A stretch of DNA of 64,000 nucleotides from Sabellastarte sp. h YS-2021 (lineage: Eukaryota > Annelida > Polychaeta > Sabellida > Sabellidae), in the NCBI GenBank assembly GCA_964017235.1, contig OZ024938.1, positions 9,725,454-9,789,453 of the forward strand, written 5' to 3'. Each line of letters starts with the position of its first letter. Position 1 is the stretch's first letter. Under the pieces are notes generated by a model. It saw nothing but the letters and a program-made list of their open reading frames with translations, did no database searches and was not told where the DNA came from. Shown here one piece after another: positions 3,056-64,000 of the stretch. The position numbers and the translations under genes were made by a program.

Positions 3056-3109
3056 GATGATAGAAGAAGAAACGATGCTGCTCCCAGTACGACCAAAAAT
3101 GTAATGAAG

Positions 3110-3286
3110 AGTTTCTAGACAGTCACTCTCGTCTACGGTATCGGCGCATGCGCGGATATTCGCAGACAAAGGGGTCACTTCTCGACAAGAAAAGTCTTTA
3201 TTAAAAGACTCGTCGGTCGATGCTTTTGCTCCACAAAACCAAACCAAGCACTTGTGAGGATAAGGTAAGGCTATTTTACGCAATAA
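3110..3286 (-). repeat. DIRS copy A right inverted terminal repeat
   Basis: Shares with copy C the block around GACAAGAA..GTCGGTCGAT..TTTTGCTCCACAAAACCAAA and the terminus AAGCACTTGTGAGGATAAGG. It also contains GCGCATGCGCG, matching the alternating GC-rich core seen in all three copies. Confidence 0.75.
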
Positions 3287-3401
3287 AAATATATTTCTAA
3301 AATTCATCAGTAAAGATGGAAAAATAATATCCTTGTCCTTACCTTGTTTTTTGACAAATAAAATTAAAAAAAATAATAGATTACATTGGTTACTTCTATA
3401 G

Positions 3402-3519
3402 GTTATCCACCAGTATGTCTCATTCAGGAGGATAAAGTTACACATGAATTTGACTTGGGTGAAAAAACAATTTTGGCAGAAATAGTGTTCCGCGAAAGGC
3501 ATCCCAGGGGAAGTTATAG
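3402..3519 (+). other. Candidate stray coding exon on the plus strand
   Basis: Open frame bounded by an AG (CTTCTATAG) and a GT (TATAG|GTTTGT). It encodes YPPVCLIQEDKVTHEFDLG and then EKTILAEIVFRERHPRGSYR. The composition is exon-like, and the pattern (PVCLI...HEFDL.E..L.EI) recalls the N-terminal segment before the GTPase P-loop in atlastin/GBP proteins. That likeness is weak and from memory of the family pattern only. It lies between DIRS A and host exon 17 but on the opposite strand, so it would be a captured fragment or part of another gene. It could also be chance. Confidence 0.3.
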
Positions 3520-3717
3520 GTTTGTGACACTATTATATTTCTGTAGTTCTCACCCAGTGTTTCAAATCAGCATTACTTAGATTAGGCAGCATAAAAACAA
3601 AGGAAAGTCAGGTTGACACTGACTGGGAATAAATCATTTTCTTTATCAGTTTTAGATGATCATTGGCCATATAACCATATCCAGGTAAACATGACGGGAA
3701 AAGAGGTTTGGCACAAG

Positions 3718-13400: not shown

Positions 13401-16400
13401 CCGTCATTTGTCTTTCCAGTGTCCAAATGTTTCTCTCAAGTATAATTCTCTAATATACTTCACCCAGTAACTCCCCTGGTGTATTTCTCACCTGTAGGTT
13501 ACCTGTCATGTCTCTTACCTATGATATACAGTAACTGTAGGTCTAGTCTATCCCTGATATTAGACATGTTTACATAATGCCAGATGTCTTGTACCTGATA
13601 TAACCTATCTTCTCTGCCAGGTGTAGTTTACCTGTGATGCTGTAATTTACCTGTTACTTTTCTGATCTGCATCTTTCTTGCTGTTCCTCTCACCTGTAAT
13701 TCACCTGTCATTCCTCTCACCTGTAATTCACCTGTCGTTCCTCTCACCTGTAATTCAGTGGTCCCTCCTCTCGCTGTAATTCACCTGTTGTTCCTGTCAC
13801 CTGTCAATCACCTGTCATTTTTCTCACCTGTACTTCACCTGTCGTTCCTATCACCTGTCAATCACCTTTCATTTATTTTTACCTGTGATATACTGCAGGG
13901 CCTGATCTCCCACCACATTGGGCGTGCTGGACACGTTTAGCGCTGTGAGTGTCGGGTGATTCTGCAGACATAGCAGCGTGTCGCTCACAATCTGCGTGTT
14001 GGACACGTTGAGACCTTCTAACCTCACAAGTCTTTGTATTCCTGACAGACTAGATACCTGTAAACAGACCCCAAAACCTCCATTGTACTAATTCCTATTG
14101 TCACCTCATCTTACAATGAAACATATCTCTTTACCTACAACACCCCTGTCATACAAACTCATATCATCATATTACCTCATTTTACGACCAAACATAATCA
14201 GACAGCAAAAGTACTAGCATATGAATTTCCATTATCCAAATAGTTTACCTTCTGAATAAGAAATACCTGTAATAGCTGTTACCCTGAAACAGACACTTGT
14301 AAAAAATACTATGTCAATGGAGACAGCAAAATTAGGTAAACGTAAATATAATAACCATATAGCTTTGTCGCATGAGGATTACCTCTGTCAAGTGACAACC
14401 TCCTAAATGTGAAGGTAGTTTTTGTCACAAATTTACAATTCCAGCTGAACAGCAAGTGATAGATATTCTCAAGAGAAGCCACACATGTGGGCGTTACACT
14501 ACAATATTATTATAGGTGTTTCGTGTAAATAATTGCTTTAACCATGTTCACACTGGCACACATATACATGTACACCCCTATCAGCAGCAAATAATCCATT
14601 AGCTGTGACTCCCTTACTGACATACCAATTCGCTTGGTCTCAACCTGAAATGTAGGTCAAGAACTACTTTCTAGAGGGTTGCTACGTAGGTTGGGGTTTG
14701 TTCCTACCTGCGTTCCCTCCATGTTGAGTACTCTGAGTTCCGGCATACTTGGCAGCGCTGTAAAGACTTGGTGGGAGACCTGTGTTCGGCTCAAGTCAAG
14801 CGTGTGTAAAGCCGGGAGTGAACTAAGTGCAAACTGACAGATCCCCTCATCAGTGATTCCAGTGTCCTCCAGTACTACAGTCACCAGACTCTGTAACTCT
14901 GCAGTGATAAGACAGGTGTTATACAGGTGAGTTAATTACAGGTAAACACTCCAGTGTGTTCCAGTACTACAGTCACCAGACTCTGTAACTCTACAGTGAT
15001 AAGACAGGTGTTATACAGGTGAGTTAATTACAGGTAAACACGTGTCCTCCGGTACTACAGTCACCAGACTCTGTAACTCTACAGTGATAAGACAGGTGTT
15101 ATACAGGTGAGTTAATTACAGGTAAACACTCCAGTGTCCTCCAGTACTACAGTCACCAGACTCCGTAACTCTGCAGTGATAAGACAGGATACAGATCAGT
15201 TAATTGCTGGTATTATACAGGTAAGTTAAGTACAGGTATGATACAGTATAGCATATTACAGCTGAACCCTCCAGTGTCTTCCAGTACTGCAGTCACCAGA
15301 CCCTGTCACTCCGCAGTGAGAAGACCGTTGCTATAGAGACAAGTTAATCAGACCTTTGCTTCATGTAAGTTAATCACAAGTTAACACTCCAGTGCCTCAG
15401 TCATGGGTACCTGAAACTCTATAGCAAGACAGGTATGACACAGGTGAGTTAACGACAGGTGTTACATAGTTAACTAGATTGGGCCAACTCGGCGCCAACA
15501 TATCCCCAGACAGGTCATCACTCACGCCACAGGTTTTGATCGGGAATTTTTTAAAACATAATTACCCATTATTATATGAACTTCAGCACATCAATCTACT
15601 CTGTTTATATCTTCCCAAGGAAGATGGTGTATCCCCAGACGCCAAATACATAACTCAAATTATATTTTCAATCTTCCTGCAATGATAACTCTAAACCTAT
15701 TTTCAAAGTATTTAAATGATTGATGATTGAATGTCCATTCTAAAATAATAATCCCAAAAGAGCATATCTGTTTCTATATTTGTTGACAAATAAAATATTA
15801 TTTTTAACTCAACTCATCATACTTTTCAATCTTCCTTCAAAGTATTTAAATGATTGATGATTCAATGTCCATTCTAAAATTCATAATCCCAAAAGCGCAT
15901 ATCTGTTTCTATATGTGTTCACAAATAAAATATTATTTAAAAAAAAATTATTTATATTATTATTTTATTATAATATTTTTAGAATTTGCAAATTGTTTTC
16001 AGTTATTCATTTCCTCTATACCTATATATGTGGTCCATATATATGCAACCTAAATATGTGACACAATCTCAGTTCTGACTCCCCTTTGTGTTATATGTAA
16101 TGAAGCCCACCACCTCCCACCCCCACCCCTCTCCCCTTCTCCACACCTCTCTCACTATTACACAAGATCTGCAACCCCATTGAGTTTTTTGTTTCTCATC
16201 TGATATCATTAAATACCTTTGTTTATTTAGTGTCACTCAATATAGCTGGAGGTCCCAGAGGTGGGTGGGGGGAATCTGGGTGGGGGATGTGGGTTGGGAC
16301 TACAAAGAGATGGAGTGCTACAGCATAAATGGTAAACAATCTATATAAAAGGGGTAGTCAAATACAAAAAGAATTGAGAATTTTAAGTATGTGATTATCA

Positions 16401-19400
16401 ACTGAAATGAGTTCATAACTGTAGGAGCTGTGTCAAAATTAACTGAGGCAAGTTGAATAAAACTGGGCTAGTTGAGGGTTAAAAATCCCCTAGTTTTACT
16501 ACATAAGGATATAATTTCATTAATATTGGGACTTAAAGCTCACTTAAAGTGTCCATTTTGTCTACTTGAATATGTTTAACCAGTTTCATTTTAAAAAGTT
16601 AAAAACTCAGCAAGCAGAGGTATAACACACAAAAATAAGTTCTTAAAAGACTAAGATAGCCATAACATTATTAATATTCAAAATTTAAATAGACAGGCAT
16701 TTCCTTTTAAAAATTCAAAGATTTCAGCTCTATAACCCACATAGTTTGACAGTTACTGGGCTTTAAAGTGGCACAATGTCCATAAATTGGGTTTCTGTGG
16801 GCATTTTACAATTGCTAAAGAGACCTTAGCAATTAAACTACAGATCTGAAACTTTTTGGGGGACATACATAACAAACAAAAATTATATATAATACAGTTT
16901 AAGACTTGTCACACTAAGCATTTCCAAATAACAGGGCAAAATACGGAAAAAATTGCAAAAAAGGCACTTGGGCGAGTGTCTATGGCCCTCATACACAGGT
17001 TAAATGTCTACTAAAAACCTTGATTTTCGGCATATGTAAAAAGGACATAATAATGCATTCCCAGATGGGATTTCAGCTCCATCAATGACATAGTTTAACA
17101 GTCACAGGGCTTAAAGGTGGTAAAAAGTCCAAATATTGGGTCTCTGTGGGCCTTTTAGAGATCTCGATGTGCCTTTCAAATTAAAGCTTCAGACTTAAAA
17201 TTTGTTACATACTAAGATTACACATAGAATATGTATCTAATAAAGTTTGAAACTTCTCAGACTTACCATTTCCAAGTTACAGAGCAAAATATGTGAAAAA
17301 TGTCTTAAAAGGGTCACTCAGGTGGGTGTTTAAGGTCCTCATACACAGGTTAAATGTCTACTTGAAGCCTTGATTTTTGGCACATGTAAAAAGAACATAC
17401 CGGTAATAATGTATTCCCAGATGAGATTTCAGCTCTATCAGTCACATAGTTTAACAGTCACAGGCCTTAAAATTGGCAAAAAGTCCAAATACTGGGTCTT
17501 TATGGGGCCTTCTAGAGACCTAAATGTGGCCTTCAAATTAAAGCTTCAGACTTAAAATTTGTCACATACTAAGATTACACATAGAATATGCATCTAATAC
17601 AGTTTGAAACTTCTTAGACTTACCATTTCCAAGTTACAGGGGAAAATATGTGAAAAATATCTAAAAATGGTCACTCGGGTGGGGATTTATGGTCCTCATA
17701 CACAGGTTAAATGTCTTCTTAAAGCCTTAATTTTTGGCACATATAAAAATAACATACTAATATCTTCCCAGATAGGATTTGAACTCTATCAGTCACATAG
17801 TTTGACAGTCACAGGGCTTAAAAGTAGCAAAAAGTCCAAATATTGGGTCTTTGGGAGCCTTTTAGAGACCTCAATTTGACCTTCAAAATTAAAGCTTCAG
17901 ACTTAAAATCTGTTACATACTAAGATTACACACAGAATATATATCTAATACAGTTTGAAACTTCTCAGACTTACCATTTCCAAGTTACAGGGAAAAAGAT
18001 GTGAAAAATGTCTTATAAGGGTCACTCGGGTGGGTGTTTATGGTCCTGATACACAGGTTAACTGTCTATTAAAGGCCTAAATGTTGGGGCACATATAAGA
18101 AAACACATAGATATATTCCCAGATGATATTTAACTTAGATGAGAGACATAGTTTGAAAGCTACAGTGCTTGAAAGTGGCAAAAAGTGCATAAATTGGGTC
18201 TCTGTGGGCACTTTTGAGACCTTAAGTCGACCCCTTTGGGTAAACCTACAGCCCTAAAATTTTCTACAGACAAGGATTACATATCAAAGTTATACCTAGC
18301 GCAGTTTGAGACTCATCAGAATTACCACTTCCAAATTATAGGGCAAAATATGTGAAAAGTATAGCAAAAAATCCCTAAGTGGGGATATTTATGGGCCTCA
18401 AACACAATTTTCTCCTCAACTTAAAGTCGTGATTTTCGGCACATGTACTAAGAACATATTAATGTGTTGTCAGGTAAAATTTCAGCCAGCTGAGCATCAT
18501 AGTTTGTGACCTACAGGGCTCTAAGTGGCCAAAAGTCCAATTTCTGACCTTAAGGTGGCCATAAGTTCTTTTTTACTGGGAGTTTAAGGTCACCTTAAAA
18601 TAGGGATCTTCCTTTGGGCACCCTTAACATGTGTACCAAGTTTGAAAAAAAAATATTAATTTGTTTTTGAGTTATTGCGTCCACAAGGAAATTTCTACGG
18701 CGGCGGCGGCGGCGCGACGGACCTGAATCCAATATATCCCCGACTTTCGTCTGGGGATATAATTACAAGAAACACCTTCAATGTCCTCAACATAGCAGTA
18801 GCAGAGTGGTTGGCACACTCACTTCCCAACTCCTTTGTCCTGGGTTCAAGTCCAGGCTCAAAGCTGAAGTGGGAAAATTGTTTACTAGTACCAAATGGTT
18901 TTCAGTGCAGAATGTCGACCAACTAGTATGCACTGCTTTTCTCCATCCCCTCAATTAAAGCCCTTTCACACTACACAGGTGGTATCACCTGTGGTAGGCC
19001 GCGTTTGGCGAAACGTTCCTGTCCTTGGATCACTGCCTGATATCCTTGCGCATCCAATGGAAATTTTAAAATTTCCGTACCGTGGGCATGTGCATGCATA
19101 TATGAATTTCTCACTACGGTAACCGAAGGTGTGGCCCACGATGTACATAAAGTTGTGATTCAGTCATTTTTGGGTGCAATACTGTGACATAAGGTGAGTT
19201 AAGGTATTGGATGTTTCGCTACTGTGTCATAAGGTCGCATACAAATCTCAAACGGTAGTTGAAGGACAGGGATGTTTTGCTGAACGCCAAGAACCGCGAA
19301 TTACACCATCTGTAATGTGAACAACACGGACAAAATGGGGCGCCCTGGGAAGCGATTCCGCAGCCGAGTAAAACCTCTAACCACGGGACATACTGCCTGT

Positions 19401-58400: not shown

Positions 58401-61400
58401 ATTACTCTGCCATCCAAAGAGCTACAGTTCTGCAACTTTATTATGTGGTAGATCGACCAAAAGTAGGTGAAGGACTTACTTACAAGAAATTGTCTATGTC
58501 CAATACTTTTAAAGATAAAAGACATTTACTAATTTTAGTACCTGTTACTCAGCTATGCAAAGAGCTACAGTTGTGCAACTTCACTATGTGGTAGATCACC
58601 CAATAGTAGGTGAACAACTTATTTAGAAGAAATTGCCTATCTGCAATACTTTTGGAGATAAAAGACATTTACTCATTTTAGCAGGTATATGACTGAGCTA
58701 TGCAAAGAGCTATAGATGTGCAACATCACTATGTGTAGATCACCCAAAAGGTGAATCAGTTATTCAGGAGAATTTGCCTTTTCATAACACTTTTAGAGAT
58801 AAAAGACATTTAATTGTATCCCCGGACAAAAGTCGGGGATACTTAGGATTCAGTACGGTCACGCCGCTGCAGAGATTTCCTTTTGGACGCGATAACTTAA
58901 AAAATATTTTAGTTACAACTTTCAAATTTGGTATGTGGGTATATATGGGCAATGCCACGAACGCTATTGTTTTGTGACCTTGACCTTCAATCTCAAGGTC
59001 ACTGGTGGCCTCTTAAAGGTCAGATTTTGGCCATTTTTCCACTTTTTGGCCCAGTTCTCCTATACAGAAAGTCGGATCATCCTATGGCTGGTATATATAA
59101 TACATATATATGTCCTCTGTAAGCATGCAGAAATTTGACCTTGAAGCTCTTCATTGAAGGTCATCCACTGACCGCCAAAGTACCTGACCAAGGGTCATTT
59201 TTGGCAAATTTGGAGATATTTTCACACTTAATGCTGACTACATTGCATGGAAACTATTGAAAATGGCTTTGCAGGTTGAGTACATGATGGAGTACCAGCA
59301 TCCAGGCTTACCGGTTACAGATCTTCATTTAAGGTCATCCACTGACCGCCAAAGTACCTGACCGAGGGTCATTTTTGGCCCTCTATTTGTTTGTTTGTTT
59401 GTGAACAAGATAACTCAAAAACTGACAAATGGATTTTGATAAAATTTTCAGCATATGTCCAAAATGGTAAAAGGAAGATATGATTAAATTTTGGGAGTGA
59501 TCAGGCTCACTGTCTGGATCTTCTGGATCCGTGAAATTTAACTTTTAAAGACAGATAACTCAAAAACTTATGGGTGCATTTTGATGAAATTTTCAGGAAA
59601 TGTCCTTAATGGGACGAGGAACAAGTGATTAGATTTTGGGAGTGATCTGGATCACTGTCTGGATCATCCGGATCCAGGCTGCCAGATGTGTTTGTGTACA
59701 ATATAGCTCAAAAACTTATGGATGGATTTTGATGAAATTTTCAGGATATGTCTGAAAAGGTAAAAGGATAAAATGGTTGAATTTTGGAAGTGATCCGGAT
59801 CACTATATGGATCTTCTGGATCCATGAAATGTAATTTTTAAAGACAGATACCTCAAAAAGTTATGGATGGATTGTGATGACATTTTCAACAAATGACCTA
59901 AATGGTACAAGGAACAAGTGATTACATTTTTGGAGTGATCTGGATCACTGTCTGGATCATCTGGATCCAGGCTGCAACATAATTTTAGGATGAATTTTGA
60001 TGATATTTTTAGGATATGTTAGAAATGGTAAAAGGAAGAAGTGGTAAAAGGAAGAAATGGTTCAATTTTGCGAGTGATCTGGACCACGACCTGGATCTTC
60101 TGGATCCATGAAATATAATTTTTAAAGACAAATAGCTCAAAAAGTCATGGGTGGATTTTGATGAAATTTCAGGAAATGACCTAAATGGGACAAGGAACAA
60201 GTGATTAGATTTTGGGAGTGATCTGGATCATCTGGATCCAGGCTGCCAGATGTGTTTGTGTACAAGATAAATCAAAAACTTATGGACGGATTTTGAGGAA
60301 ATTTTCAGGATATGTCTAAAAAGGTAAAAGGATGAAATGATTGAATTTTGGAAGTGATCCGGATCACTATATGGATCTTCTGGATCCATGAAATGTAATT
60401 TTTAAAGACAGATACCTCAAAAAGTTATGGATGGATTGTGATGACATTTTCAGCAAATGACCTAAATGGTGCGAGGAACAAGTGATTAGATTTTGGGAGT
60501 GATCTGGATCACTGTCTGGATCATCTGGATCCAGGCTACCAGATGTGTTTGTGTACAATGTAGCTGAAAAACTTATGGCCAGATTTTGATGAAATTTTCA
60601 GGATATGTCTGAAATGGTAAAAGGATGAAATGGCTGAATTTTGGAAGTGATCCCGATCACTATATGGATCTTCTGGATCAATGAAATGTAATTTTTAAAG
60701 ACAGATACCTCAAAAAGTTATGGATGGATTGTGATGACATTTTCAACAAATGACCTAAATGGTACAAGGAACAAGTGATTACATTTTTGGAGTGATCTGG
60801 ATCATCTGGATCCAGGCTGCAACAGAATTTTAGGATAAATTTTGATGATATTTTTAGGATATGTTAGAAATGGTAAAAGGAAGAAGTGGTAAAGGGAAGA
60901 AATGATTCAATTTTGCGAGTGATCTGGACCACTATCTGGATCTTCTGGATCCATGATATATAATTTTAAAGACAAATAGCTCAAAAAGTCATGGGTGGAT
61001 TTTGATGAAATTTTCAGGAAATGTCCTAAATGGGACAAGGAACAAGTGATCAGATTTTGGGAGTGATCTGGATCATCTGGATCCAGGCTGCCAGATGTGT
61101 TTATGTACAAGATAAATCAAAAACTTATGGACGGATTTTGATGAAATTTTCAGGATATGTCTGAAAAGGTAAAAGGATGAAATGATTGAATTTTGGAAGT
61201 GATCCGGATCACTATATGGATCTTCTGGATCCATGAAATGTAATTTTTAAAGACAGATACCGCAAAAAGTTATGGATGGATTGTTTCAGCAAATGGCCTA
61301 AATGGTACAAGGAACAAGTGATTAAATTTTTGGAGTGATCTGGATCACTGTCTGGATCATATGGATCCAGGCTGCCACATAATCTTGGGATGGACTTTGA

Positions 61401-64000
61401 TATTTTTAGGATATGTTACAAATGGTAAAAGGAAGAAGTGGTAAAAGGAAGAAATGATTCAATTTTGCGAGTGATCTGGACCACTATCTGAATCTTCTGG
61501 ATCCAAGAAATGTAATTTTTAAAGACAAATAGCTCAAAAAGTCATGGATGGATTTTTATGAAATTTTCAGGAAATGTCTTAAATGGGACAAAGAACAAGT
61601 GATTAGTTTTTGGGAGTAATCTGGATCACTGTCTGGATCATATGGATCATGGCTGCCAGATGTGTTTGTGTACAAGATAACTAAAAAACTTATGTACGGA
61701 TTTTGATGAAATTTTTAAAATATGTCTGAAAAGGTAAAAGGATGAAATGATTGAATTTTGGAAGTGATCCGGATCACTATATGGATCTTCTGGATCCATG
61801 AAATGTAATATTTAAAGACAGATATAAGTGAAAGAACTAGTGATTAGCTTTTGGGAGTAATCTGGTACTATGGAGAATCCTGACCTGGTGCTCCAGGAAA
61901 CAGGCTCAAGACCGACATATTCACACCTTAACTATGTCCCGTCCGTGGATACACTGCGTCGAGATGCAATCTCTAGTCATTTGAGCAGCTGTTACTCAGC
62001 TATGGAAAGAGCTACAGTTCTGCAACTTCACTATGTGGTAGATTACCCAAAAGTAGGTGAATGAATTATTTAGAAGAAATTGCCTACCTATAATACTTTT
62101 AGAGATAAAAGACATTTATTCATTTTAGTAGCTATTACTCAGCTATCTACTCACTTAGCTATTGACCTCGATCTGCAAAAGCAATAAAAATATAAAGGAC
62201 ACAGGAAAGTAAGCTTATCAAAAACCAGATGAATAACAAATGAAAAGATTTGCTTAAGTTTAATACTTGTGAAGGTATTTGGCATTTATTCCCATCATAA
62301 TTTTGATACAAATAAGAAAATAGCTATTGCTCACTTATGACATGCAATGGAACCCCAAACTATATGCCATCTTATAGTTAAGGACAAAGTAGCTGAACAA
62401 ATTATTTTAGGAAAATATTGTAACTGCAATAGTTTTGGAGTTACAATGGATTTACTCAGCCGTCAGAATTTCAAAGTAGCTATTACTCAGCTATCCAAAA
62501 TGCAACAGGTCTGCAACTTTACTATGTGATAGCTTTTCAAAAACTAGATGAATAACATATTTGAAAATATTTCCCTAACTTTAATACTTTTGAAGATATT
62601 TGACATTTACTTATGTCATTATTTTGCTACAAATAAGAAAATAGCTATTACTCACTTATGGCATGCAATAGAACCCCAAACTATATGCCATCTTATAGTT
62701 AAGGACAAAGTAGCTGAACAACATATTTTAAGAAAATACTCTAACTGCAATAGTTTTGGAGTTACAATGGATTTACTCAACAGTCAGAATTTCTAAGTAG
62801 CTATTACTCAGCTATGCAATGTGCAACAGGTCTGAAACTTTACTATGTGATTGCTTACCAAATCTAGATGAATAACATGTTGAAAGATTTGTTTAACTGT
62901 AATACTTCTAAAGATATTTGACATTTACTTTTGTTGTTATATTGCTACAAATAAGGAAATAGCTATTACTCACTTATGGCATGCAATAGAAACCCAAACT
63001 ATTTGCCATCTTATAGTTAAGGACAAATAGCTGAATAACATTTTTAAAAAAATACTCTAACTGCAGTAATTTTGGAGTTACAATGGATTTACTCAACTGT
63101 AGAATTTCAAAGTAGCTATTACTCAGCTATCCAATGTGCAACAGGTCTGAAACTTTACTATGTGATAGCTTATCAAAAAGTAGATGAATAACATATTTGA
63201 AAAGAATTCCCTAACTTTAATACTTTTGAAGATATCTGACATTTACTTATGTCATTATTTTGCTACAAATAAGAAAATAGCTATTACTTATGGCATGCAA
63301 TAGGACCCCAAACTAAGTACCATCTTATAGCTAAGGACAAAGTAGCTGGACAACCTATTTGAAGAAAAAGCTGTAACTGCAATAGTTTTTGAGTTATGAG
63401 CCCTTTACTCCAAGTAGCTAAGATTGCTATTACTCACTTATCTTTAGGCCTAAGTCCATAAAACCAAAAAATTTTTCATGGGCGTGAAAATTCATTGGGA
63501 CAATTAATTTACAAAAAATCTGTAGCTGTAGTAGTTTTGGAGAAATCTGCGTGACTAACTAACGCACGCACACACACACACGCACGCTCCCTCCCAGGCT
63601 AAAGCCCAGCGGAGGATAATTATGCCGAATAGTCTATCATGGATGATGAAGATTAAGTGCTACAAAAGTTTGGATAAAATTTATTACATTAGATTTCCGA
63701 ACTCACTGTGCATGTAGCTGTTTTTTTGTTGTTGTTGTTTTTTTTCACCAAAAAAACAACCATATTTTGCTTTCTGTAAATTCTTTTTGTTGTTTTTCAC
63801 AGAGTTTCATAAATAATCTGACTACAAGCATCTTTCTGGACTCACCGAGTCTGAAGTCTGTCCTCTGTCTCCATATTCTCACCTCCTGAGTGGAAGGCTG
63901 ACCTCTGATCCCCCGTCTCCTGTACAGGGCTAACAGGCTGTGGGTTCAAAAATGGGTTGGAGCCAATTACATTCTCTCCACTCACTTCATCAGGTTTCTG
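4339..64000 (-). CDS. UBX-domain plus leucine-rich-repeat protein, 17 exons in window, partial at both ends
   Basis: Spliced gene built by matching GT/AG sites and codon phase over 17 exons: 63846-64000, 57116-57221, 52427-52496, 51513-51652, 45313-45438, 43888-44005, 43242-43436, 41244-41384, 26453-26614, 22840-22939, 20573-20715, 19618-19692, 14708-14898, 13883-14057, 12933-13004, 5772-5853, 4339-4400. These give 2113 coding bases, about 704 codons, with no stop. Order: polar N-terminus, charged coiled coil, Ser/Thr/Gln linker, UBX domain, acidic Pro/Gly-rich linker, helical segment, then LRRs to the left edge. UBX domains are known to bind the N domain of p97/VCP. LRRs of this LxxLxLxxCxxLT type are protein-recognition surfaces, as in F-box/LRR and Amn1 proteins. 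I infer a p97 adaptor with an LRR substrate arm. The start codon lies right of the window and the stop left of it. I do not recognise a specific named orthologue. Introns reach about 14.6 kb and hold all the transposons below. Confidence 0.88.
4401..5771 (-). other. Host intron between exons 16 and 17, nothing recognised
   Basis: AT-rich intron with no coding pattern, tandem repeat or inverted ends that I could identify. Confidence 0.6.
5772..5853 (-). CDS. Host gene exon 16: one leucine-rich repeat
   Basis: An 82-base exon with acceptor AAATATATAG and donor GTAAGTG. Encodes LHTLDLTNYINVGDAGM and EHIGKLL. Phase 1 in, 2 out. The intron before it contains the decayed DIRS copy C. Confidence 0.9.
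6101..6330 (+). pseudogene. Fragment of non-LTR retrotransposon reverse transcriptase C-terminus
   Basis: The plus frame reads LQNLCNDLPLEILTAPSR and then a diverged ..VDLKPICF. It resembles the LWNxLPxxIRxAPSxxxFKxxLKTxLF tail found at the end of many non-LTR (L2/CR1-like) reverse transcriptases. Opposite to the host gene, in the intron before exon 16. No upstream RT domain remains. Confidence 0.5.
7163..7380 (+). repeat. DIRS copy C left inverted terminal repeat
   Basis: Mirrors 12222-12422 over the block CACAAGTGCTTGTTTGG through GACGAATGTCGAGAGCTC. The two arms are far better preserved than the coding interior. Confidence 0.85.
7830..8870 (-). pseudogene. DIRS copy C tyrosine recombinase remnant
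   Basis: Nucleotide similarity to copy B's recombinase is visible, for example AGAGGCAGCCATGGATGTAA near 8070 against the HDVRSMAAS coding stretch of copy B. It is interrupted by stops and a poly-T stretch at 8690-8700. Not functional. Confidence 0.6.
9100..11050 (-). pseudogene. DIRS copy C RT/RNase H remnant
   Basis: The best preserved part (10681-11016) reads ETAEIIRNSV, then HLLQFNVHGQTYQFRALNF and ..EAKLILQSR, matching the RT block of copies A and B. Frames are broken throughout, and the segment around ATTTCAAGGATTGCAGTAGG is repeated three times (about 9602, 9789, 9910), showing internal duplication. Confidence 0.75.
11060..12120 (-). pseudogene. DIRS copy C gag remnant
   Basis: Occupies the gag position between the RT remnant and right terminal repeat, with short matches to copy A gag. 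A local duplication of the GGTAGTTCCAGTCGAATAAT motif occurs near 11975 and 12103. Many stops; non-functional. Confidence 0.5.
12222..12422 (-). repeat. DIRS copy C right inverted terminal repeat
   Basis: Reverse complement of the left arm. Ends GATAAGGTAAGGCTATTTTA then CGCAATAAAA, the same terminus as copies A and B. Confidence 0.85.
12933..13004 (-). CDS. Host gene exon 15: one leucine-rich repeat
   Basis: A 72-base exon (exactly 24 codons, phase 1 both sides) with acceptor TGGTGTTTTCAG and donor GTATGTGC. Encodes LQALNLPSRLTTSDEGM plus QYLA, one LRR. Confidence 0.9.
13090..13880 (-). repeat. Minisatellite of splice-donor-like CAGGTGA/CAGGTAA motifs
   Basis: On the plus strand, degenerate units such as CACCTGTAATTCACCTGTC recur many times, densest at 13680-13880. 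Read on the host gene's strand these are ACAGGTGAATTACAGGTGA, repeated consensus-like 5' splice sites, directly downstream of the exon 14 donor. Spacing is about 15-40 bases. Confidence 0.8.
13883..14057 (-). CDS. Host gene exon 14: leucine-rich repeats
   Basis: A 175-base exon with acceptor CTGTTTACAG and donor GTAAAAAT. Encodes LEGLNVSNTQIVSDTLL and LTALNVSSTPNVVGDQAL, two regular LRRs. The donor is followed by an intron full of donor-like CAGGTGA motifs (13090-13880). Phase 0 in, 1 out. Confidence 0.92.
14058..14707 (-). other. Host intron between exons 13 and 14, no clear feature
   Basis: AT-rich. About 14310-14370 shares a short segment (TGTCAATGGAGACAGCAAAA) with 24737-24800, so a small dispersed repeat is likely. 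Nothing else recognised. Confidence 0.4.
14708..14898 (-). CDS. Host gene exon 13: leucine-rich repeats
   Basis: A 191-base exon with acceptor CTTATCACTGCAG and donor GTAGGAAC. Encodes LVTVVLEDTGITDEGI, LHTLDLSRTQVSHQVF and LRVLNMEGTQ, two full repeats plus the start of a third. Phase 1 in, 0 out. The first ~40 bases of the exon and its acceptor are copied several times upstream in the intron (see 14860-15320). Confidence 0.92.
14860..15320 (-). repeat. Tandem copies of exon 13 acceptor and first exon bases
   Basis: A unit of about 88-92 bases holds the intron end, the AG (CTTATCACTGCAG or CTGTAG) and the first ~40 exon bases. Copies are anchored on TACTACAG ending at 14880, 14972, 15060 and 15152, with a diverged fifth ending at 15292. 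Only the 14880 copy leads into the full exon; the others run back into intron-like sequence. Confidence 0.85.
15474..18762 (+). mobile_element. Family E satellite-carrying element, copy E1
   Basis: Starts CTAGATTGGGCCAACTCGG, with CATATCCCCAGAC 30 bases in. Ends with a GCGGCG-rich stretch and the hairpin ATATCCCCGAC..GTCTGGGGATAT. The inner block is shared almost base for base with E2 (46006). From 16930 to 18460 it holds about five tandem units of ~350 bases (anchor GGTCACTCGGGTGGG). No transposase. The short inverted subterminal repeats, 3' hairpin and internal satellite fit Helentron-associated non-autonomous elements (HINE/DINE/pearl-like); that assignment is inference. Confidence 0.8.
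18785..18957 (+). mobile_element. tRNA-derived SINE head or fragment
   Basis: Reads TAGCAGAGTGGTTGGCACAC (A-box-like) and, about 35 bases on, GGGTTCAAGTCC, a perfect RNA polymerase III B box (GGTTCAAGTCC). The GAGTGGTT core recalls Ser/Leu tRNAs, but there is no complete cloverleaf, so I call it a SINE rather than a tRNA gene. It follows the E1 end and abuts the MITE at 18960. Confidence 0.6.
18960..19413. mobile_element. MITE with 16-bp terminal inverted repeats
   Basis: Begins GCCCTTTCACACTACA and ends TGTAATGTGAAAGGGC, inverted at 15 of 16 positions. 454 bp, no coding capacity. Flanks show no obvious duplication. Confidence 0.8.
19618..19692 (-). CDS. Host gene exon 12: one leucine-rich repeat
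   Basis: A 75-base exon with acceptor TCTGTCTGTAG and donor GTGAGTC. Encodes LRFLSLAGCRQLTNNCL plus PILQ, one Amn1/FBXL-type LRR. Phase 1 in and out, so single-repeat exons of this type can be skipped or duplicated without changing frame. Confidence 0.92.
20021..20439. mobile_element. hAT-like MITE, TIR CAGGGTGTATCCA
   Basis: Starts CAGGGTGTATCCACT and ends inverted as CTGGATACACCCTG. The interior carries repeated TTCCATGACTTTTC motifs on both arms. 419 bp, non-coding. The CAGGG terminus suggests hAT; a clean 8-bp target duplication is not visible. Confidence 0.7.
20573..20715 (-). CDS. Host gene exon 11: two leucine-rich repeats
   Basis: A 143-base exon preceded by TTTTTTTTCAG. Encodes LTHLVLDCYPYVTNELL and LQHLSLASCPLITDRGL, two clear cysteine-containing LRRs, ending QSIA. 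Donor GTAAATG. Phase 2 in, 1 out. Confidence 0.93.
20716..22090 (-). other. Host intron between exons 10 and 11, first part
   Basis: Mostly unremarkable. Around 20940-21240 there are two imperfect inverted arms (ACCGGGTCCCGAAAACAAAA and the reverse of CGGGAACCGGTTCTTGG), possibly a worn MITE. Confidence 0.4.
22090..22620 (-). pseudogene. Dispersed repeat with non-LTR RT tail remnant
   Basis: Shares long stretches with 57594-57870 (CAACAGAGGGACT.TTTCTTAC). On the minus strand it reads a degenerate ..FSNSFSHYAPVL..NSFPL, the same RT tail as that copy, with stops. The rest (to ATTGTACTCTGTATCTGACT) is further 5' sequence of the same repeat. Confidence 0.5.
22840..22939 (-). CDS. Host gene exon 10: helical cap of the LRR region
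   Basis: A 100-base exon with acceptor TATTTCCACAG and donor GTAAAG. Encodes IPANIAIHVVNHLIKERLL and then KPKTLRPFIS. The P-x-x-[IL]-x-x-x-[IV]-[IV]-x-x-L-[IL] helix resembles the F-box-like or capping helices before LRRs in ZYG11/FBXL-type proteins, though no family can be named. Phase 1 in, 2 out. Confidence 0.85.
22940..23600 (-). other. Host intron, A/T-rich, nothing recognised
   Basis: Contains an imperfect inverted stretch at about 23070-23350 (ATTCTTGGAATTTTTTAAG against TAAGAAAAATTCTTATTC), possibly a foldback remnant. No coding signal. Confidence 0.35.
23612..24060. mobile_element. MITE with 10-bp target duplication
   Basis: Flanked by perfect direct repeats ACTAATAACT at 23602-23611 and 24061-24070. 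Ends AGTGCAGTAACGAC and (inverted) GTCGTGAAG..AGTGCTGTAA are partly inverted. The arms are rich in CGACGCG motifs. The 9-11-bp duplication size suggests a Mutator-like element. 449 bp, non-coding. Confidence 0.75.
24890..25895 (+). mobile_element. Satellite array with AGGTCA motifs and terminal palindrome
   Basis: About six tandem units of ~145 bases (CCTAACCAATGTCCCTACCA, ..GATATAGCC..ACAAGATTTT, ..GGTCACTACGGCAAGGTCAA). It ends in a hairpin at 25866-25895, TACCCCG-acAGCCCTTAAGGGCTa-CGGGGTA. The plan (array followed by 3' hairpin) is like families E and F, but the sequence is unrelated. The left boundary is uncertain. Confidence 0.65.
26225..26452 (-). repeat. Tandem copies of the exon 9 3' end and donor
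   Basis: GCCTGGGATCACAG recurs at about 26351 and 26465, with a diverged CTGCCTGGAATCACAG at 26237 and another at 24358. The period is about 114. Each copy includes the exon tail (CTGTGATCCCAGGCA on the minus strand), a donor-like site and the following CATAGGTGAGAA. Confidence 0.8.
26453..26614 (-). CDS. Host gene exon 9: linker and helical segment
   Basis: A 162-base exon with acceptor CATTCATTCTAG and donor GTAAGGG. Encodes AEAASQRFAQNPPQEKDAEM and then VPRLVQLLVQNVSQRV, a likely amphipathic helix, ending CDPRQPLT. Phase 1 in and out. Its 3' end and donor are repeated, degenerate, downstream in the intron (see repeat at 26225-26452). Confidence 0.88.
27065..27945 (+). repeat. 147-bp tandem array (F1)
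   Basis: Six units, anchored on TGACCTTGAAGGAGGGGTCC at about 147-148-base steps (27231, 27379, 27526, 27673, 27820). Each carries TGACCTTGA and a downstream inverted AAGGTCA, plus CCCAGCCCATGATTTCCTAT. Confidence 0.93.
28240..29666 (+). repeat. 155-bp tandem array (F1)
   Basis: Units anchored on TTTTCAAGTTATAAGTGATT, spaced 155 bases (28771, 28926, 29081, 29236). Consensus parts: TTTACTCAACAGTGATAACC, GCTATTACTCAGCTATGCCA, TTTTACTATGTTATAGCTGA. Continues at 35324 across the DIRS insertion. Confidence 0.93.
29667..29876 (+). repeat. DIRS copy B left inverted terminal repeat
   Basis: From TGTAAAAATTTTATTGTAAT through GCGCATGACTGCGCATGCGC to CCTCACTTTTAATTTT. The part from ACCTTATCCTCACTAGTGCT inward mirrors 35141-35300; the outermost ~43 bases are specific to this side. 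Confidence 0.92.
29943..30052. repeat. DIRS copy B internal complementary region
   Basis: First half (TAAGTATTTAAC.., to TTTTTACA at 30004) is the complement of the left outer edge. Second half (TTTTATTGCGTAAAATACCC..) is the complement of the right outer edge. The junction falls at 30004/30005 and fixes both element ends. In DIRS-1 this region templates circle closure. Confidence 0.92.
30053..30502 (-). other. DIRS copy B 3' untranslated stretch
   Basis: Between the internal complementary region and the recombinase stop. AT-rich with no open frame. Contains a third partial edge motif (CACCCTTGTGAGGATAAAGT at 30140), perhaps an older rearranged copy. Confidence 0.6.
30503..31560 (-). CDS. 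DIRS copy B tyrosine recombinase domain
   Basis: The integrase of the element, which recombines the circular DNA intermediate into the genome. The frame is open from 32647 to 30503 (714 codons), but only the last ~350 look like real recombinase; the upstream part is out-of-frame RT/RNase H sequence. N-terminal SAM-like part: ..ISTIADFLIHLFNEKNLKP. Catalytic residues: Arg in SGRRRGEVHAW (about 31095), His-x-x-Arg in HDVRSMAAS (about 30690), Tyr in FTNFYLKDVS (about 30593). It overlaps the RNase H frame by about 150 bases, so translation may need a frameshift or internal start. Appears intact. Confidence 0.9.
31405..32650 (-). CDS. DIRS copy B RNase H part of the RT polyprotein (downstream of frameshift)
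   Basis: The frame contains MGRLHMRPFQWYLK, RNase H LLFTDASVKGWGAHL, ELKAVFLAI, SDNSTVVAYLNKQGG and HIQGCLNVIADS, then a C-terminal region (WHKPMIDLFATKMNNKLPLY) typical of DIRS pol. It is separated from the RT frame by one base at the A-run near 32645. All acidic residues expected for RNase H are present. Confidence 0.88.
32634..33677 (-). CDS. DIRS copy B reverse transcriptase part (ends early at frameshift)
   Basis: 347 codons. RT motifs: RLFLVPKPGKKWRPVIDLS, VSVDLAEAYFHIPIH, FKALPFGIATAPLEFTRVV, catalytic HQYLDDWLL, then INFKKSEL and FDFLGYRFDL. It stops just after PTEKNGKF because of a one-base loss in a run of A (plus strand T-run at 32644-32650). Copy A reads through the same point in frame. 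The start ATG lies 215 bases inside gag, matching the 218-base overlap of copy A. Confidence 0.9.
   Translation of the reverse strand: MWRTNTNAAVLPKDRRWIRNPFSILGKEGLTIIVLHFQTHPQRILFVASKIISHNSNPHRPPEEVVGGEGNDYTQEALLPGGRLQLFYKVWKENGCHPRVVHILEHGYEIILRDPIELARHPTIHSGYANQQKQNFLLECVQQMLQKKAVIPVRMSATLGFHSRLFLVPKPGKKWRPVIDLSILNSHLTVPTFKMETAEVIRNSICKGEWVVSVDLAEAYFHIPIHQRSQNLLRFHLGGRSFQFKALPFGIATAPLEFTRVVKEVKLMLENRGIRIHQYLDDWLLRAPTQQICMEQSKQLVEFVQELGWVINFKKSELTPTQKFDFLGYRFDLVKGEVLPTEKNGKF
33463..35096 (-). pseudogene. DIRS copy B gag-like protein, split by two frameshifts
   Basis: Three consecutive frames together match copy A gag: 34863-35096 (MAEGQIKSKGQ; Cys/His cluster CRHTSFEWDHHRFCLSC, C..C), 33791-about 34870 (acidic middle and helical core) and 33463-about 33830 (CNMQLARRDTILK to RGGRGGRRK). 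The breaks are at about 34870 and 33830, both in runs of A on the coding strand (7 and 6 long), each one base longer than copy A's frame implies. No other stops. Confidence 0.85.
35141..35323 (-). repeat. DIRS copy B right inverted terminal repeat
   Basis: Complements 29710-29876 almost perfectly (GTAAGCACTAGTGAGGATAA outward). The outer edge GGGTATTTTACGCAATAAAA is specific to this end and is repeated inside the internal complementary region. Confidence 0.92.
35560..35945 (+). repeat. Family F 3' tail (F1)
   Basis: Unique-sequence tail also present at 40330-40750: GACAGATCCAGGTCTCATAC, CCTCGATAGATAAGGTATCT, ending GACGCCCACGCCGCAGAGTG. It defines the right end of the element. Confidence 0.8.
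36064..37372 (+). mobile_element. Family E element, copy E5, carrying 147-bp units
   Basis: Starts CTAGATATTGCGTCTCGACG with GTATCCCCAGATG. Ends GCGTGACCGTACTGAATCCT then AGTATCCCCGTCTTTCGTCC. The 3' 500 bases match E3 and E4. The central array (36125-36835) is not the GGATCC repeat of E3/E4 but the 147-bp unit of family F. Confidence 0.78.
36125..36835 (+). repeat. 147-bp tandem array (E5)
   Basis: About five units. The first two are diverged (AAAGATTCGGGGCACATGAT); the last two are close to the F1/F2 consensus (CCTTGAAGGAGGGGTCCAAG). Confidence 0.88.
37481..37541. other. C-run joined to a perfect 16-bp hairpin
   Basis: A run of about 20 C (37490-37509) merges into CCCCCCTTCAATCTGA (37504-37519), loop ACACTG, then TCAGATTGAAGGGGGG (37526-37541). 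All 16 stem positions pair. Confidence 0.9.
37995..38565 (+). repeat. 147-bp tandem array (F2)
   Basis: About four units of the CCTTGAAGGAGGGGTCCAAG type, with the same order of motifs as in F1 and E5. Confidence 0.9.
38745..40340 (+). repeat. 155-bp tandem array (F2)
   Basis: About ten units. Some alternate with a variant unit (ACTCATGATGGAAGTTACTG and AGACAGACACCCAACTTACT), so there is higher-order structure. Includes the uninterrupted equivalent of the DIRS B target site near 39945. Confidence 0.92.
40751..41243 (-). other. Host intron before exon 9, no feature seen
   Basis: AT-rich with no coding pattern or repeat recognised between the F2 end and exon 8's donor. Confidence 0.5.
41244..41384 (-). 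CDS. Host gene exon 8: acidic, Gly-rich linker
   Basis: A 141-base exon with acceptor GTCTTCCTAG and donor GTGAGTG. Encodes EPMESASDDSHDEGAGMD and then a Gly/Pro/Gln-rich part (HQLGGMLQGGAAIGGQDG). Phase 1 in and out. A 5S-rRNA-like repeat sits about 170 bases upstream in the preceding intron. Confidence 0.86.
41557..41632 (-). mobile_element. 5S-rRNA-derived sequence (SINE3-like head or 5S pseudogene)
   Basis: On the minus strand it reads CTGAAGTTAAGCAGCAATGG, GTTAGTACTTTGACGGGTGA and CCGCCTCAG, closely following the internal-promoter part of 5S rRNA (GAAGCTAAGCAG.., GGTTAGTACTTGGATGGGAG, ACCGCC). Box A-like and box C-like elements are in the right order. Further 3' (to about 41440) the sequence is not 5S, as expected for a SINE body. 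Confidence 0.65.
41633..43241 (-). other. Host intron between exons 7 and 8
   Basis: Mostly unremarkable. At about 42895-42960 GGGTTTGATCCC resembles a polymerase III B box (possible SINE fragment, weak). Confidence 0.4.
43242..43436 (-). CDS. Host gene exon 7: acidic then Pro-rich linker
   Basis: A 195-base exon with acceptor TTTAATTCAG and donor GTCAGTG. Starts DPPMNLEDPEIETLL, then a basic patch (GKKKKLIETSL), a Pro/Gln-rich run (LAPQPHQVPPPQASPSEPS) and an acidic/Gln tail. Probably disordered. Phase 1 in and out. Confidence 0.87.
43888..44005 (-). CDS. Host gene exon 6: UBX domain, second half, variant FPR loop
   Basis: Acceptor CTGTTTACAG at 44006-44015 is required by phase and by the UBX alignment. 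It encodes PFPHKEFGPDSMEITLADLG and then LVPNGSLVL, the canonical end of a UBX fold. The p97-contacting loop, normally Phe-Pro-Arg, reads Phe-Pro-His here. A second AG lies upstream (TATTGCAG, next to 44053) and the frame stays open from there, but using it would put the exon out of phase with exon 5. Donor GTAAGTT; phase 0 in, 1 out. Confidence 0.88.
44080..44440. repeat. Degenerate minisatellite with CACAATCAAACTTGG units
   Basis: GTGGATCACAATCAAACTT-like units recur about every 40-60 bases between host exons 5 and 6. No other feature there. Confidence 0.65.
44693..45068. mobile_element. hAT-like MITE
   Basis: Starts TAGTGGTGAGATCACC and ends inverted as TCGTCCCAGCACTA. The inner arms carry CTCGAGTTTCA-type motifs in both orientations. 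Imperfect 8-bp flanks ATTATGAT / ATAATAAT (6 of 8). Non-coding. Confidence 0.6.
45313..45438 (-). CDS. Host gene exon 5: UBX domain, first half
   Basis: A 126-base exon (42 codons) between ATTTGACAG and GTATGTTG. IRLPEGRPLRERF matches the UBX opening (xIRLPDGxxLxxxF). TVLQEVWDFV is the first helix, and it ends NFRLVQ, the strand leading to the FPR loop. Phase 0 at both ends. Confidence 0.92.
46493..47698. mobile_element. hAT element copy 1 inside E2
   Basis: Perfect 8-bp target duplication GTTTCTAT (46485-46492 and 47699-47706). Terminal inverted repeats TAGGGATGGGTCGGTA and TACCGACCCATCCCTA are perfect over 16 bp. Non-autonomous, and itself interrupted by a second hAT. Confidence 0.93.
46564..47263. 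mobile_element. Second hAT family element nested in hAT copy 1
   Basis: Perfect 8-bp target duplication TCCGGGAC (46556-46563 and 47264-47271). Ends TAGGGGTGCAACGA and TCGTTGCAGTACTA are inverted at 11 of 14 positions. 700 bp, no transposase frame. Confidence 0.9.
50540..51512 (-). other. Host intron before exon 5, nothing firmly recognised
   Basis: AATTAATCG motifs face each other at about 51050 and 51390, perhaps a worn MITE. No coding pattern. Confidence 0.35.
51513..51652 (-). CDS. Host gene exon 4: Ser/Thr/Gln linker and first UBX strand
   Basis: A 140-base exon with acceptor TATTTCAG and donor GTAATG. It encodes a low-complexity linker (EGSSGSSIAQGAST..., TTTGQSQTTSQAT) and ends AHIQ, the start of the first UBX beta strand that exon 5 continues as IRLPEG. 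Phase 1 in, 0 out. Confidence 0.87.
51653..52426 (-). other. Host intron between exons 3 and 4
   Basis: Contains a G-run of about 15 bases at 52283-52298. Otherwise featureless. Confidence 0.5.
52427..52496 (-). CDS. Host gene exon 3: coiled coil continued
   Basis: A 70-base exon with acceptor TTGACAG and donor GTCAGT. It encodes AKEQALAQIREDQERRKLL, continuing the charged helix. The pattern ALAQIREDQERRK closely resembles the LxxIxxDRxER segment found just before many UBX domains. Phase 0 in, 1 out. Confidence 0.88.
52864..52958. mobile_element. Small foldback element
   Basis: ACAGGCGGTACAATC (52864-52878) and GATTGTACCGCCTGT (52944-52958) are perfectly inverted, with a second inner pair GTTGGGCA / TGCCCAAC. 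It may be the core of a larger MITE (about 52800-52975). Confidence 0.75.
53274..56735 (+). mobile_element. Family E element, copy E3, carrying GGATCC-rich array
   Basis: Starts CTAGAGATTGTGTCTCGACG. Subterminal GTATCCCCGGACG at the left is the exact inverse of CGTCCGGGGATAC at the right (13 bp). The array 53450-55960 alternates two ~140-base unit types (GGATCCAGAAGATCC and GGATCCAGATGATCC). A unique 3' part (55990-56735) is shared with E5 and E4 and ends in the hairpin TATCCCCGAC-TTTC-GTCCGGGGATA. The repetitive open frames here are by-products of the array. Confidence 0.83.
53450..55960 (+). repeat. GGATCC-rich tandem array in E3
   Basis: Roughly 18 units of 130-150 bases with conserved cores AGTGATCCGGATCACTTCC and TAATCACTTGTTCC. 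Unusually dense in GATC. Confidence 0.9.
57116..57221 (-). CDS. Host gene exon 2: charged coiled coil
   Basis: Acceptor TTTCATCCAG and donor GTAAGTG flank a 106-base exon encoding DEQRQVKARYEEKQRLELQ and a Lys-rich tail (MKEERLAKKK). The heptad-like charged helix resembles the coiled coil that precedes UBX domains in UBXN1-like proteins. Phase 2 in, phase 0 out. Confidence 0.88.
57594..57870 (-). pseudogene. Non-LTR retrotransposon RT C-terminal fragment
   Basis: The minus frame reads FSNSFSHFAPALHNSLPLHV, then SPSVTSFRKHLKTHLF, the characteristic C-terminal tail of L2/CR1-like reverse transcriptases. Only the tail and 3' sequence (CAATATCTTCCCCCC) remain. A related, more decayed copy lies at 22090-22620. 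Confidence 0.7.
58200..58812 (+). repeat. Third satellite family (G), left part
   Basis: Units of about 145 bases (AAAGACATTTACTCATTTTA, GCTATTACTCTGCCATCCAA, CTATGTGGTAGATC). Distantly like the 155-bp F unit (ACTCAGCTATGC..GAGCTACAG..). Interrupted by E4 and resumes at 61977. Confidence 0.85.
58813..61976 (-). mobile_element. Family E element, copy E4, inverted relative to E3
   Basis: Reverse orientation copy of E3: hairpin end first (ATTGTATCCCCGGACAAAAG), then the shared unique part (to about 59400), the GGATCC array (59500-61830), and the start CTAGAGATTGCATCTCGACG at 61976. It splits a family G satellite unit (..AGACATTTA / TCATTTGAG..) without target duplication. Confidence 0.83.
59500..61830 (-). 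repeat. GGATCC-rich tandem array in E4
   Basis: About 16 units, the inverse of the E3 array, with the same alternation of two unit types. Confidence 0.9.
61977..63430 (+). repeat. Third satellite family (G), right part
   Basis: Starts with the unit interrupted by E4, then longer ~300-base higher-order units (ATAGAACCCCAAACTATATG, TTTTGGAGTTACAATGGATT, TACTATGTGATAGCTT) repeated about four times with increasing divergence. Confidence 0.85.
63564..63592. repeat. CA/GC dinucleotide microsatellite
   Basis: ACGCACGCACACACACACAC-type run between the satellite and exon 1. Confidence 0.9.
63846..64000 (-). CDS. Host gene exon 1 in window (5' side open)
   Basis: Open to the window edge, with donor GTGAG following at 63841-63845. 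It encodes a polar, Pro/Asn/Ser-rich stretch including NPFLNPQPVSPVQ and ends ETEDRLQT plus two bases (phase 2). No domain is recognisable; it is probably a disordered N-terminal region. The phase fits the next exon exactly (CG|C, Arg). The true start codon must lie beyond 64000. Confidence 0.8.

What the first reader, a model, noticed from the sequence alone, without database searches (positions are those of the whole stretch)
15474..61976. Family E: hairpin-ended non-autonomous elements that carry interchangeable satellites
Five copies share a start (CTAGA.ATTG or CTAGATTGGG, TATCCCC near the left end) and a 3' hairpin (TATCCCCGAC-TTTC-GTC.GGGGATA). They hold three different arrays: 350-bp units (E1, E2), 147-bp units (E5) and GGATCC units (E3, E4). 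Subterminal inverted repeats, a 3' hairpin, no target duplication and inner tandem repeats are features of Helentron-associated elements. The modular swapping of satellites is the unusual part and may be the system worth describing here.
Basis: partly seen in the sequence, partly recalled or inferred. Interest (0 to 1): 0.8.

Follow-up and report, generated by a model that had tools for sequence, protein, structure and literature searches.

The report
Rolling-circle transposons ferrying satellite arrays
Five copies of a protein-less jumping element, most likely of the rolling-circle (Helitron) type, each carry a block of satellite repeats, and one block type also sits in an unrelated element nearby, a kind of shuffling already known from oysters.

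Summary
In detail: five copies (E1-E5) share ends and carry three unrelated arrays. Flanks are A and T in 5 of 5. Two copies (E2, E4) have empty sites inside the window without target duplication; E1's is tentative. The internal layout is that of DINE-1/HINE elements, but the termini (TT...CTAG, A^T) are Helitron-type. Such intermediates are published for Pacific oyster. "Family E" is two families under the published rule (E1/E2; E3/E4/E5). Swapping rests on one contrast: E5 has E3/E4 ends but a different array. That 147-bp array also sits, in the same orientation, in two copies of an element with unrelated ends (B1, B2). Arrays shared across different Helitrons are also already reported in oysters. 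No autonomous partner appeared among the 29 of 79 ORFs scanned; the host genome is not held. Verdict: new member of a known kind, modest interest.

The parts
15474..18762 (-). E1, whole element read 5'->3' on the minus strand (3289 bp); family E-I
   Evidence: tentative empty site in the neighbouring array 14858-15188 (gapped alignment only; no peak in ungapped)
46006..50291 (-). E2, whole element (4286 bp including a nested TIR element); family E-I
   Evidence: empty site 34/40 at 47391 on the minus strand
53274..56734 (-). E3, whole element (3461 bp); family E-II
   Evidence: no empty site found
58814..61976 (+). E4, whole element (3163 bp); family E-II
   Evidence: empty sites 36/40 at 62100, 34/40 at 58510, 33/40 at 58232, 31/40 at 58653
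36065..37371 (-). E5, whole element (1307 bp); family E-II ends with a different array
   Evidence: no empty site found
18733..18761 (-). E1 5' hairpin: subterminal repeat ATATCCCCAGAC and its complement
   Evidence: -9.7 kcal/mol, z -4.7
50262..50290 (-). E2 5' hairpin, same sequence as in E1
   Evidence: z -4.7
56706..56732 (-). E3 5' hairpin; subterminal repeat TGTATCCCCGGACG
   Evidence: z -3.5; 14-bp exact inverted match to the 3' end
58816..58842 (+). E4 5' hairpin
   Evidence: z -5.3
37345..37367 (-). E5 5' hairpin, decayed
   Evidence: z -1.0
15474..15518 (-). E1 3' end: inverted subterminal repeat, bulged palindrome, CTAG
   Evidence: (z -1.0)
46006..46050 (-). E2 3' end, identical to that of E1 over 60 of 60 bp
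36065..36109 (-). E5 3' end: palindrome TGCGTCGAGACGCA, then ATATCTAG
   Evidence: z -2.1
53274..53318 (-). E3 3' end: subterminal repeat, altered palindrome (not in the best fold), CTAG
   Evidence: (z -1.7)
61932..61976 (+). E4 3' end: subterminal repeat with one mismatch, altered palindrome (not in the best fold), CTAG
   Evidence: (z -0.4)
16884..18358 (.). 350-bp array in E1
48779..50008 (.). 350-bp array in E2
53426..55975 (.). GGATCC array in E3 (145/290-bp periods)
59396..61824 (.). GGATCC array in E4
36136..36833 (.). 147-bp array in E5
55991..56397 (.). 174-bp unit, 2.3 copies, in the 5' module of E3; fewer copies in E4 and E5
15630..15640 (-). second, internal copy of the subterminal repeat in E1, 129 bp inside the 3' one
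   Evidence: following palindrome weak (z -1.8)
46183..46193 (-). second, internal copy of the subterminal repeat in E2, 150 bp inside the 3' one
   Evidence: palindrome not supported (z +1.0)
26783..35932 (-). B1: unrelated element carrying the same 147-bp array (27067-27940) plus a 155-bp array; split by a retroelement at about 29670-35321; outer boundaries not proven
37709..40744 (-). B2: second copy of B, 147-bp array (38002-38564) and 155-bp array; palindromic GTCAGCTGAC repeats and a strong hairpin at each end; outer boundaries not proven
   Evidence: (z -4.3 and -5.0)
46493..47698 (.). TIR element nested in E2 with 8-bp duplication GTTTCTAT; control for duplication detection and source of E2's empty site

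Best explanation
E1-E5 are non-autonomous rolling-circle transposons of the Helitron/Helentron group, moved in trans by a Rep-helicase not seen in the window. Read 5'->3' each is: A^TT, 5' subterminal repeat (TATCCCC(A/G)GAC where intact), a 4-nt loop, the complementary repeat, a short GCC-rich stretch, tandem-repeat array(s), 3' subterminal repeat (GTC(T/C)GGGGATA where intact), a short palindrome, CTAG^T. Inferred steps: the Rep protein nicks at the 5' end, a single strand is peeled off and copied, the subterminal repeats and hairpins mark the ends, the 3' palindrome/CTAG stops the transfer, and the strand joins an A^T site without duplicating it. Because only the ends are needed, the interior is free to change: arrays gain or lose units, and an array can be exchanged for another by template switching or by recombination with another array-bearing element. 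E5 is the one case seen: E3/E4 ends around an array otherwise found in family B. Shown here: ends, flanks, lack of duplication, two empty sites, the shared array. Inferred: polarity, rolling-circle mode, the protein partner, the exchange mechanism and its direction.
For: A upstream and T downstream in 5 of 5 copies (about 8e-6 by base frequency, with the boundary chosen after looking). No 2-9-bp flank duplication in 5 of 5. Joined flanks match uninterrupted paralogues at zero offset: E2 34/40, E4 36/40, against 25-28/40 for the other best matches of E2 and of the copies without empty sites; shifting the right boundary by 1-3 bases lowers the best 28-position score from 25 to 19-20 in E4 and from 23 to 19-22 in E2, the latter a small margin. 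Exact inverted subterminal repeats of 12 bp (E1, E2) and 14 bp (E3); 2 of 4000 random pairs reach 12 and 0 of 4000 reach 14. The repeat variant agrees between the two ends in E1, E2, E3 and, but for one mismatch, E4. Strong 5' hairpin in 4 of 5. CTAG at the other end in 5 of 5. Order of parts equals that given for Cg_HINE (5' subTIR, IR, microsatellite; repeats; 3' subTIR, palindrome; PMC7492417). At E 1e-3, E5's end modules match E3/E4 (its 5' end weakly E1/E2) and not B; B2's modules match no E copy; the 147-bp array of E5 matches only E5, B1 and B2.
Against: No Rep-helicase seen, but only 29 of 79 ORFs of 80 aa or more were scanned, and the genome is not held. The 3' end folds little better than shuffles (z -1.0, -1.0, -2.1, -1.7, -0.4 for E1, E2, E5, E3, E4), and the palindrome is in the best fold in only 3 of 5. 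The 5' end is TT, not the usual TC. The exact inverted match between the ends is only 7 bp in E4 and 5 bp in E5, and E5's two ends carry different variants. E4's boundary base is A where the empty units have T or C, so a substitution or a one-base boundary shift must be assumed; E1 shows no peak at zero offset (19 of 28, against 20 at -1), and E3 and E5 have no empty site. The boundary can slide by 1-2 bases because flank and element share A. E1 and E2 have identical first 40 and last 60 bases, so the five copies are few independent cases.
Confidence: 0.8

Rival explanations
1. Typical Helentron-associated elements (HINE/DINE-1 type) in the reader's orientation, inserting within TT.
For: Subterminal repeats, complementary repeat, palindrome and inner arrays.
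Against: The base on the other side of the junction is A in 5 of 5 and one end is CTAG in 5 of 5; the published order of parts fits the reverse orientation; E2's empty site reads GAAA^TTAT.
Confidence: 0.1
2. MITEs or foldback elements moved by a DDE transposase whose duplication has decayed.
For: Inverted repeats near the ends; copies are about 10-15% diverged.
Against: The repeats are not terminal; no duplication in 5 of 5, while the TIR element nested in E2 keeps a perfect 8-bp one (it inserted later, so the control is not of equal age); two empty sites lack a duplication.
Confidence: 0.04
3. Elements moved by a tyrosine recombinase (Crypton-like), which also need make no duplication.
For: No duplication, no terminal inverted repeats.
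Against: Subterminal repeats, 5' hairpin, CTAG end and A^T flanks are not expected from this group (recalled, not tested).
Confidence: 0.03
4. E5 did not exchange its array; E3/E4 did, or both took arrays independently from free-standing satellite arrays. This rivals only the direction of exchange.
For: Three E5 monomers are mixed among ten B monomers in the tree, with low support (0.18-0.76) at the nodes next to them, so direction cannot be read.
Against: Nothing decisive either way.
Confidence: 0.4

Closest known systems
Cg_HINE elements of Crassostrea gigas, group 2 (Vojvoda Zeljko et al. 2020, PMC7492417; abstract, whole Results section, part 1 of 2 of the Discussion and passages seen)
   Same: Order of parts, short satellite arrays between conserved ends, related ends with unrelated arrays, no duplication, no autonomous partner linked.
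   Different: Cg_HINEs prefer TT/T-rich sites; there each satellite cluster went with one pair of ends, here the 147-bp array is in two unrelated end types.
Helitron/Helentron intermediates of the oyster genome (Penaloza et al. 2021, PMC7992393; passages seen)
   Same: CTAG end, mostly A^T insertion, subterminal repeats in 257 of 751, a third of those with the 5' complementary repeat.
   Different: Those start with TC and only 1 had a microsatellite; here TT and a GCC-rich stretch.
proto-Helentron-Pi of Phytophthora infestans (Thomas et al. 2014, PMC4067079; passages seen)
   Same: 5' TT, 3' CTAG, A^T insertion.
   Different: About 14 kb and protein-coding; no satellite arrays mentioned in the passages seen.
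Hel-2 of Lepidoptera (PMC4344730; abstract part and passages seen)
   Same: 3' CTAG, A/T flanks, 3' hairpin, 5' inverted repeat, subterminal repeats, microsatellite.
   Different: 5' TC; a 250-bp consensus; no large arrays mentioned in the passages seen.
'Shuffled' Helitron loci in C. gigas (review PMC12628747; passages seen)
   Same: Different arrays in one element and the same array in different Helitrons.
   Different: Summarised there as complex, partly truncated loci; here E5 and B2 keep both ends.

Membership tests
Helitron (canonical) | Insertion between A and T without target duplication | tested here: met
   A and T flanks 5 of 5, no 2-9-bp duplication 5 of 5; empty sites for E2 and E4, with one base difference at the E4 junction
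Helitron (canonical) | 3' end CTRR (here CTAG) | tested here: met
   5 of 5
Helitron (canonical) | Hairpin upstream of the 3' CTRR | tested here: inconclusive
   Palindrome in the best fold of E5 (z -2.1) and, bulged, E1/E2 (z -1.0 each); not in that of E3 or E4
Helitron (canonical) | 5' end TC | tested here: not met
   TT in 5 of 5
Helitron/Helentron group | Autonomous partner with HUH Rep and Pif1-type helicase | tested here: inconclusive
   None in 29 of 79 window ORFs against Pfam; genome not held
Helentron / HINE | Subterminal inverted repeats of at least 11 identical bp | tested here: met
   Met in 3 of 5: 12 bp in E1 and E2, 14 bp in E3; one internal mismatch in E4 (7 bp exact), decayed in E5 (5 bp exact)
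Helentron / HINE | 5' complementary repeat and microsatellite at one end, palindrome after the subterminal repeat at the other | tested here: inconclusive
   5' complementary repeat strong in 4 of 5, GCC-rich stretch in the 5' alignment, 3' palindrome weak
Helentron / HINE | Insertion within TT | tested here: not met
   A^T by flanks in 5 of 5 and by E2's empty site
Helentron / HINE | Partner Rep-helicase with C-terminal endonuclease | not testable with these tools
   host genome not held
One single family E (rule of Thomas et al.: 11-bp identical subterminal repeat for a family; 80% over the last 60 bp for a subfamily) | Same subterminal repeat and 3' end in all five | tested here: not met
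   E1/E2 against E3: 10 of 12 subterminal bases; E1/E2 against E3/E4/E5: 53-60% over the last 60 bp

The most novel reading that the evidence does not exclude
The 147-bp array behaves as a mobile module of its own: passed, in fixed orientation, between two rolling-circle families with unrelated ends (a TT...CTAG, A^T lineage and family B, whose ends have palindromic subterminal repeats), which would break the one-satellite-one-pair-of-ends rule stated for Cg_HINEs and suggest that arrays, not elements, are the unit that spreads.
Probability: 0.3. Interest if true: 0.5.

Novelty: new member of a known kind. Interest (0 to 1): 0.32.

Why it matters
It adds a compact, bounded example of satellite arrays being exchanged between rolling-circle elements, with two empty sites, and a lineage with HINE anatomy but Helitron termini. 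With the host genome in hand it would make testable how satellites are dispersed through a genome and whether one Rep-helicase can serve both end types.

Tried and rejected
Own-genome search: no genome is held. Pattern scans for further copies: the hairpin, the 5' end and the 147-bp unit gave 0 matches in viral contigs, and the hairpin and 5' end gave 0 in genome contigs; E3's 5' module had no match in the phage collection. These collections are viral and prokaryotic, so the misses say little. Autonomous partner in the window: 29 of 79 ORFs of 80 aa or more were scanned against Pfam (9 at E 0.01, 20 at E 0.1). Found: reverse transcriptase, RNase H just under its cut-off, and short matches to YmiD and LRR_6 (under cut-off) and UBX (just over); no Rep or helicase. 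50 ORFs were not scanned (list). Family B: boundaries not proven, no empty site found, and B1 lacks the last hairpin seen in B2. Internal second subterminal repeat of E1/E2 as a bypassed older 3' end: the following palindrome is not convincing (z -1.8 and +1.0). E1's empty site: seen in a gapped alignment, no peak in ungapped comparison, so tentative. Monomer tree: of 15 hits to the 147-bp unit, two partial E5 hits (36136 and 36252) were dropped as too short; 13 were used. The free-satellite reading (no transposon) was rejected because ends are sharp and two empty sites exist.

Literature: nine searches. Seven papers were opened (PMC7492417, PMC4067079, PMC7992393, PMC4344730, PMC11136912, PMC8268682, PMC12628747); six only as passages, PMC7492417 as abstract, passages, both parts of Results and part 1 of 2 of the Discussion.

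Full report
What is there. The window holds five copies of an element whose ends recur: E1 15474-18762, E2 46006-50291, E3 53274-56734, E5 36065-37371 and, on the opposite strand, E4 58814-61976. Within pairs the similarity runs through arrays and ends: E1/E2 86.4% over 1709 and 90.0% over 1657 columns, E3/E4 84.8% over 2632. E5 shares 507 columns at 86.6% and 56 at 85.7% with E3, one stretch at each end, and otherwise only extra copies of the 174-bp unit. Arrays are 350-bp units (E1, E2), 145/290-bp GGATCC units (E3, E4) and 147-bp units (E5).

One family or two. Over the last 60 bp E1 and E2 are identical, E3/E4/E5 are 80-92% identical, and between the groups identity is 53-60%. The subterminal repeat is ATATCCCCAGAC in E1/E2 and GTATCCCCGGAC in E3. 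Under the rule of Thomas et al. (PMC4067079, passage: at least 11 bp of identical subterminal repeat for a family) these are two families. The two ends carry the same variant in E1, E2 and E3 and, with one mismatch, in E4, which fits joint recognition by one protein; E5's ends have decayed and do not agree.

Ends and target. Flanks are A before and T after the element in 5 of 5 copies, and no copy has a 2-9-bp flank duplication. When the flanks are joined, E2 matches an uninterrupted paralogue at 34 of 40 positions and E4 matches four array units at 36, 34, 33 and 31 of 40, at zero offset; E5 and E3 reach only 28 and 26, by matching themselves. Shifting the right boundary by 1-3 bases lowers the best score clearly in E4 (25 to 19-20 of 28) and slightly in E2 (23 to 19-22); E1 shows no peak (19 at zero, 20 at -1). 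E4's base before the junction is A where the empty units have T or C. E1 is compatible with an empty site in the adjacent array, but only in a gapped alignment, and I count it as tentative. A TIR element nested in E2 keeps a perfect 8-bp duplication, so duplications can be seen here, though that insertion is younger than E2. Because element and flank both carry A at the boundary, the exact cut can slide by one or two bases.

Polarity. Read on the strand that ends in CTAG, each copy is TT + subterminal repeat + 4-nt loop + complementary repeat + GCC-rich stretch + arrays + inverted subterminal repeat + palindrome + CTAG. The 5' hairpin is strong in 4 of 5 copies (z -3.5 to -5.3) and decayed in E5 (z -1.0). 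The 3' end folds weakly (z -0.4 to -2.1), and its palindrome is in the best fold of E1, E2 and E5 only. Exact inverted repeats of 12 and 14 bp between the ends are rare by chance (2 and 0 of 4000 random pairs); E4 and E5 have only 7 and 5 bp exact.

Array exchange. At E 1e-3, E5's end modules match E3/E4 and, weakly at the 5' end, E1/E2, and not the B elements; B2's modules match no E copy; the 147-bp array of E5 matches only itself, B1 and B2, all on the same strand. If B is read by the same order of parts, the orientation relative to element polarity is also the same. In the tree of 13 monomers four B1 monomers pair with four B2 monomers in order, while E5's three sit among the B monomers with low support (0.18-0.76); the best E5-B pair is 94% identical. 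So one satellite sits between two unrelated pairs of ends. Direction cannot be told. Within E1/E2 and E3/E4 the arrays go with the element; the claim of interchange inside 'family E' therefore rests on E5 against E3/E4 alone.

What it is. The best reading is non-autonomous rolling-circle transposons with HINE-like anatomy and Helitron-like termini. Each parent label fails one tested feature: Helitron (5' TC not met) and Helentron (TT target not met), so I file the elements under neither alone. Elements with such mixed features are published: 257 of 751 oyster Helitrons had subterminal repeats, and such elements were called possible intermediates (PMC7992393), and proto-Helentron-Pi has TT...CTAG and A^T insertion (PMC4067079). 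Related ends with unrelated arrays (PMC7492417) and the same array in different Helitrons (PMC12628747) are published too. The host and an autonomous partner could not be examined.

Verdict. Real and well bounded, partly mislabelled, ordinary in kind. The part worth following is the 147-bp array under two unrelated end types, against the statement for Cg_HINEs that each satellite cluster goes with one pair of ends (PMC7492417).

Noticed in passing
window 29670-35321: A retroelement with inverted terminal repeats (185 bp, 95%) and complementary internal stretches, with a reverse transcriptase match and an RNase H match just under its cut-off, splits B1; DIRS-like in layout (label recalled).
   Followed up: partly
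window 1-1271, 9843-10722, 31939-33208: Stretches about 71-74% alike in pairs, probably relatives of that retroelement; a 668-aa open frame at 1523-3529 (minus) has no Pfam match at E 0.01.
   Followed up: no
window 46493-47698 and about 45699-46005 with 50292 onwards: Two copies of a TIR element (TAGGGATGGG..., hAT-like by its 8-bp duplication, label recalled): one nested in E2, the other apparently the target into which E2 itself inserted.
   Followed up: partly
window 37709-40744 and 26783-35932: Family B: palindromic GTCAGCTGAC subterminal repeats, a strong hairpin at each end of B2 (z -4.3, -5.0) and two consecutive arrays (147 and 155 bp); another HINE-like element.
   Followed up: partly
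window 58223-58812 and 62212-63396: 143-bp and 321-bp arrays about 72-76% similar to the 155-bp array of family B; E4 lies at the edge of the first.
   Followed up: no
window 15630-15640 and 46183-46193: An extra internal copy of the subterminal repeat in E1 and E2; it could mark an older, bypassed 3' end, but the palindrome is weak.
   Followed up: partly
window 25078-25813: A further array of 139/146-bp units, GGTCAAGGTCA-rich, whose flanks were not examined.
   Followed up: no
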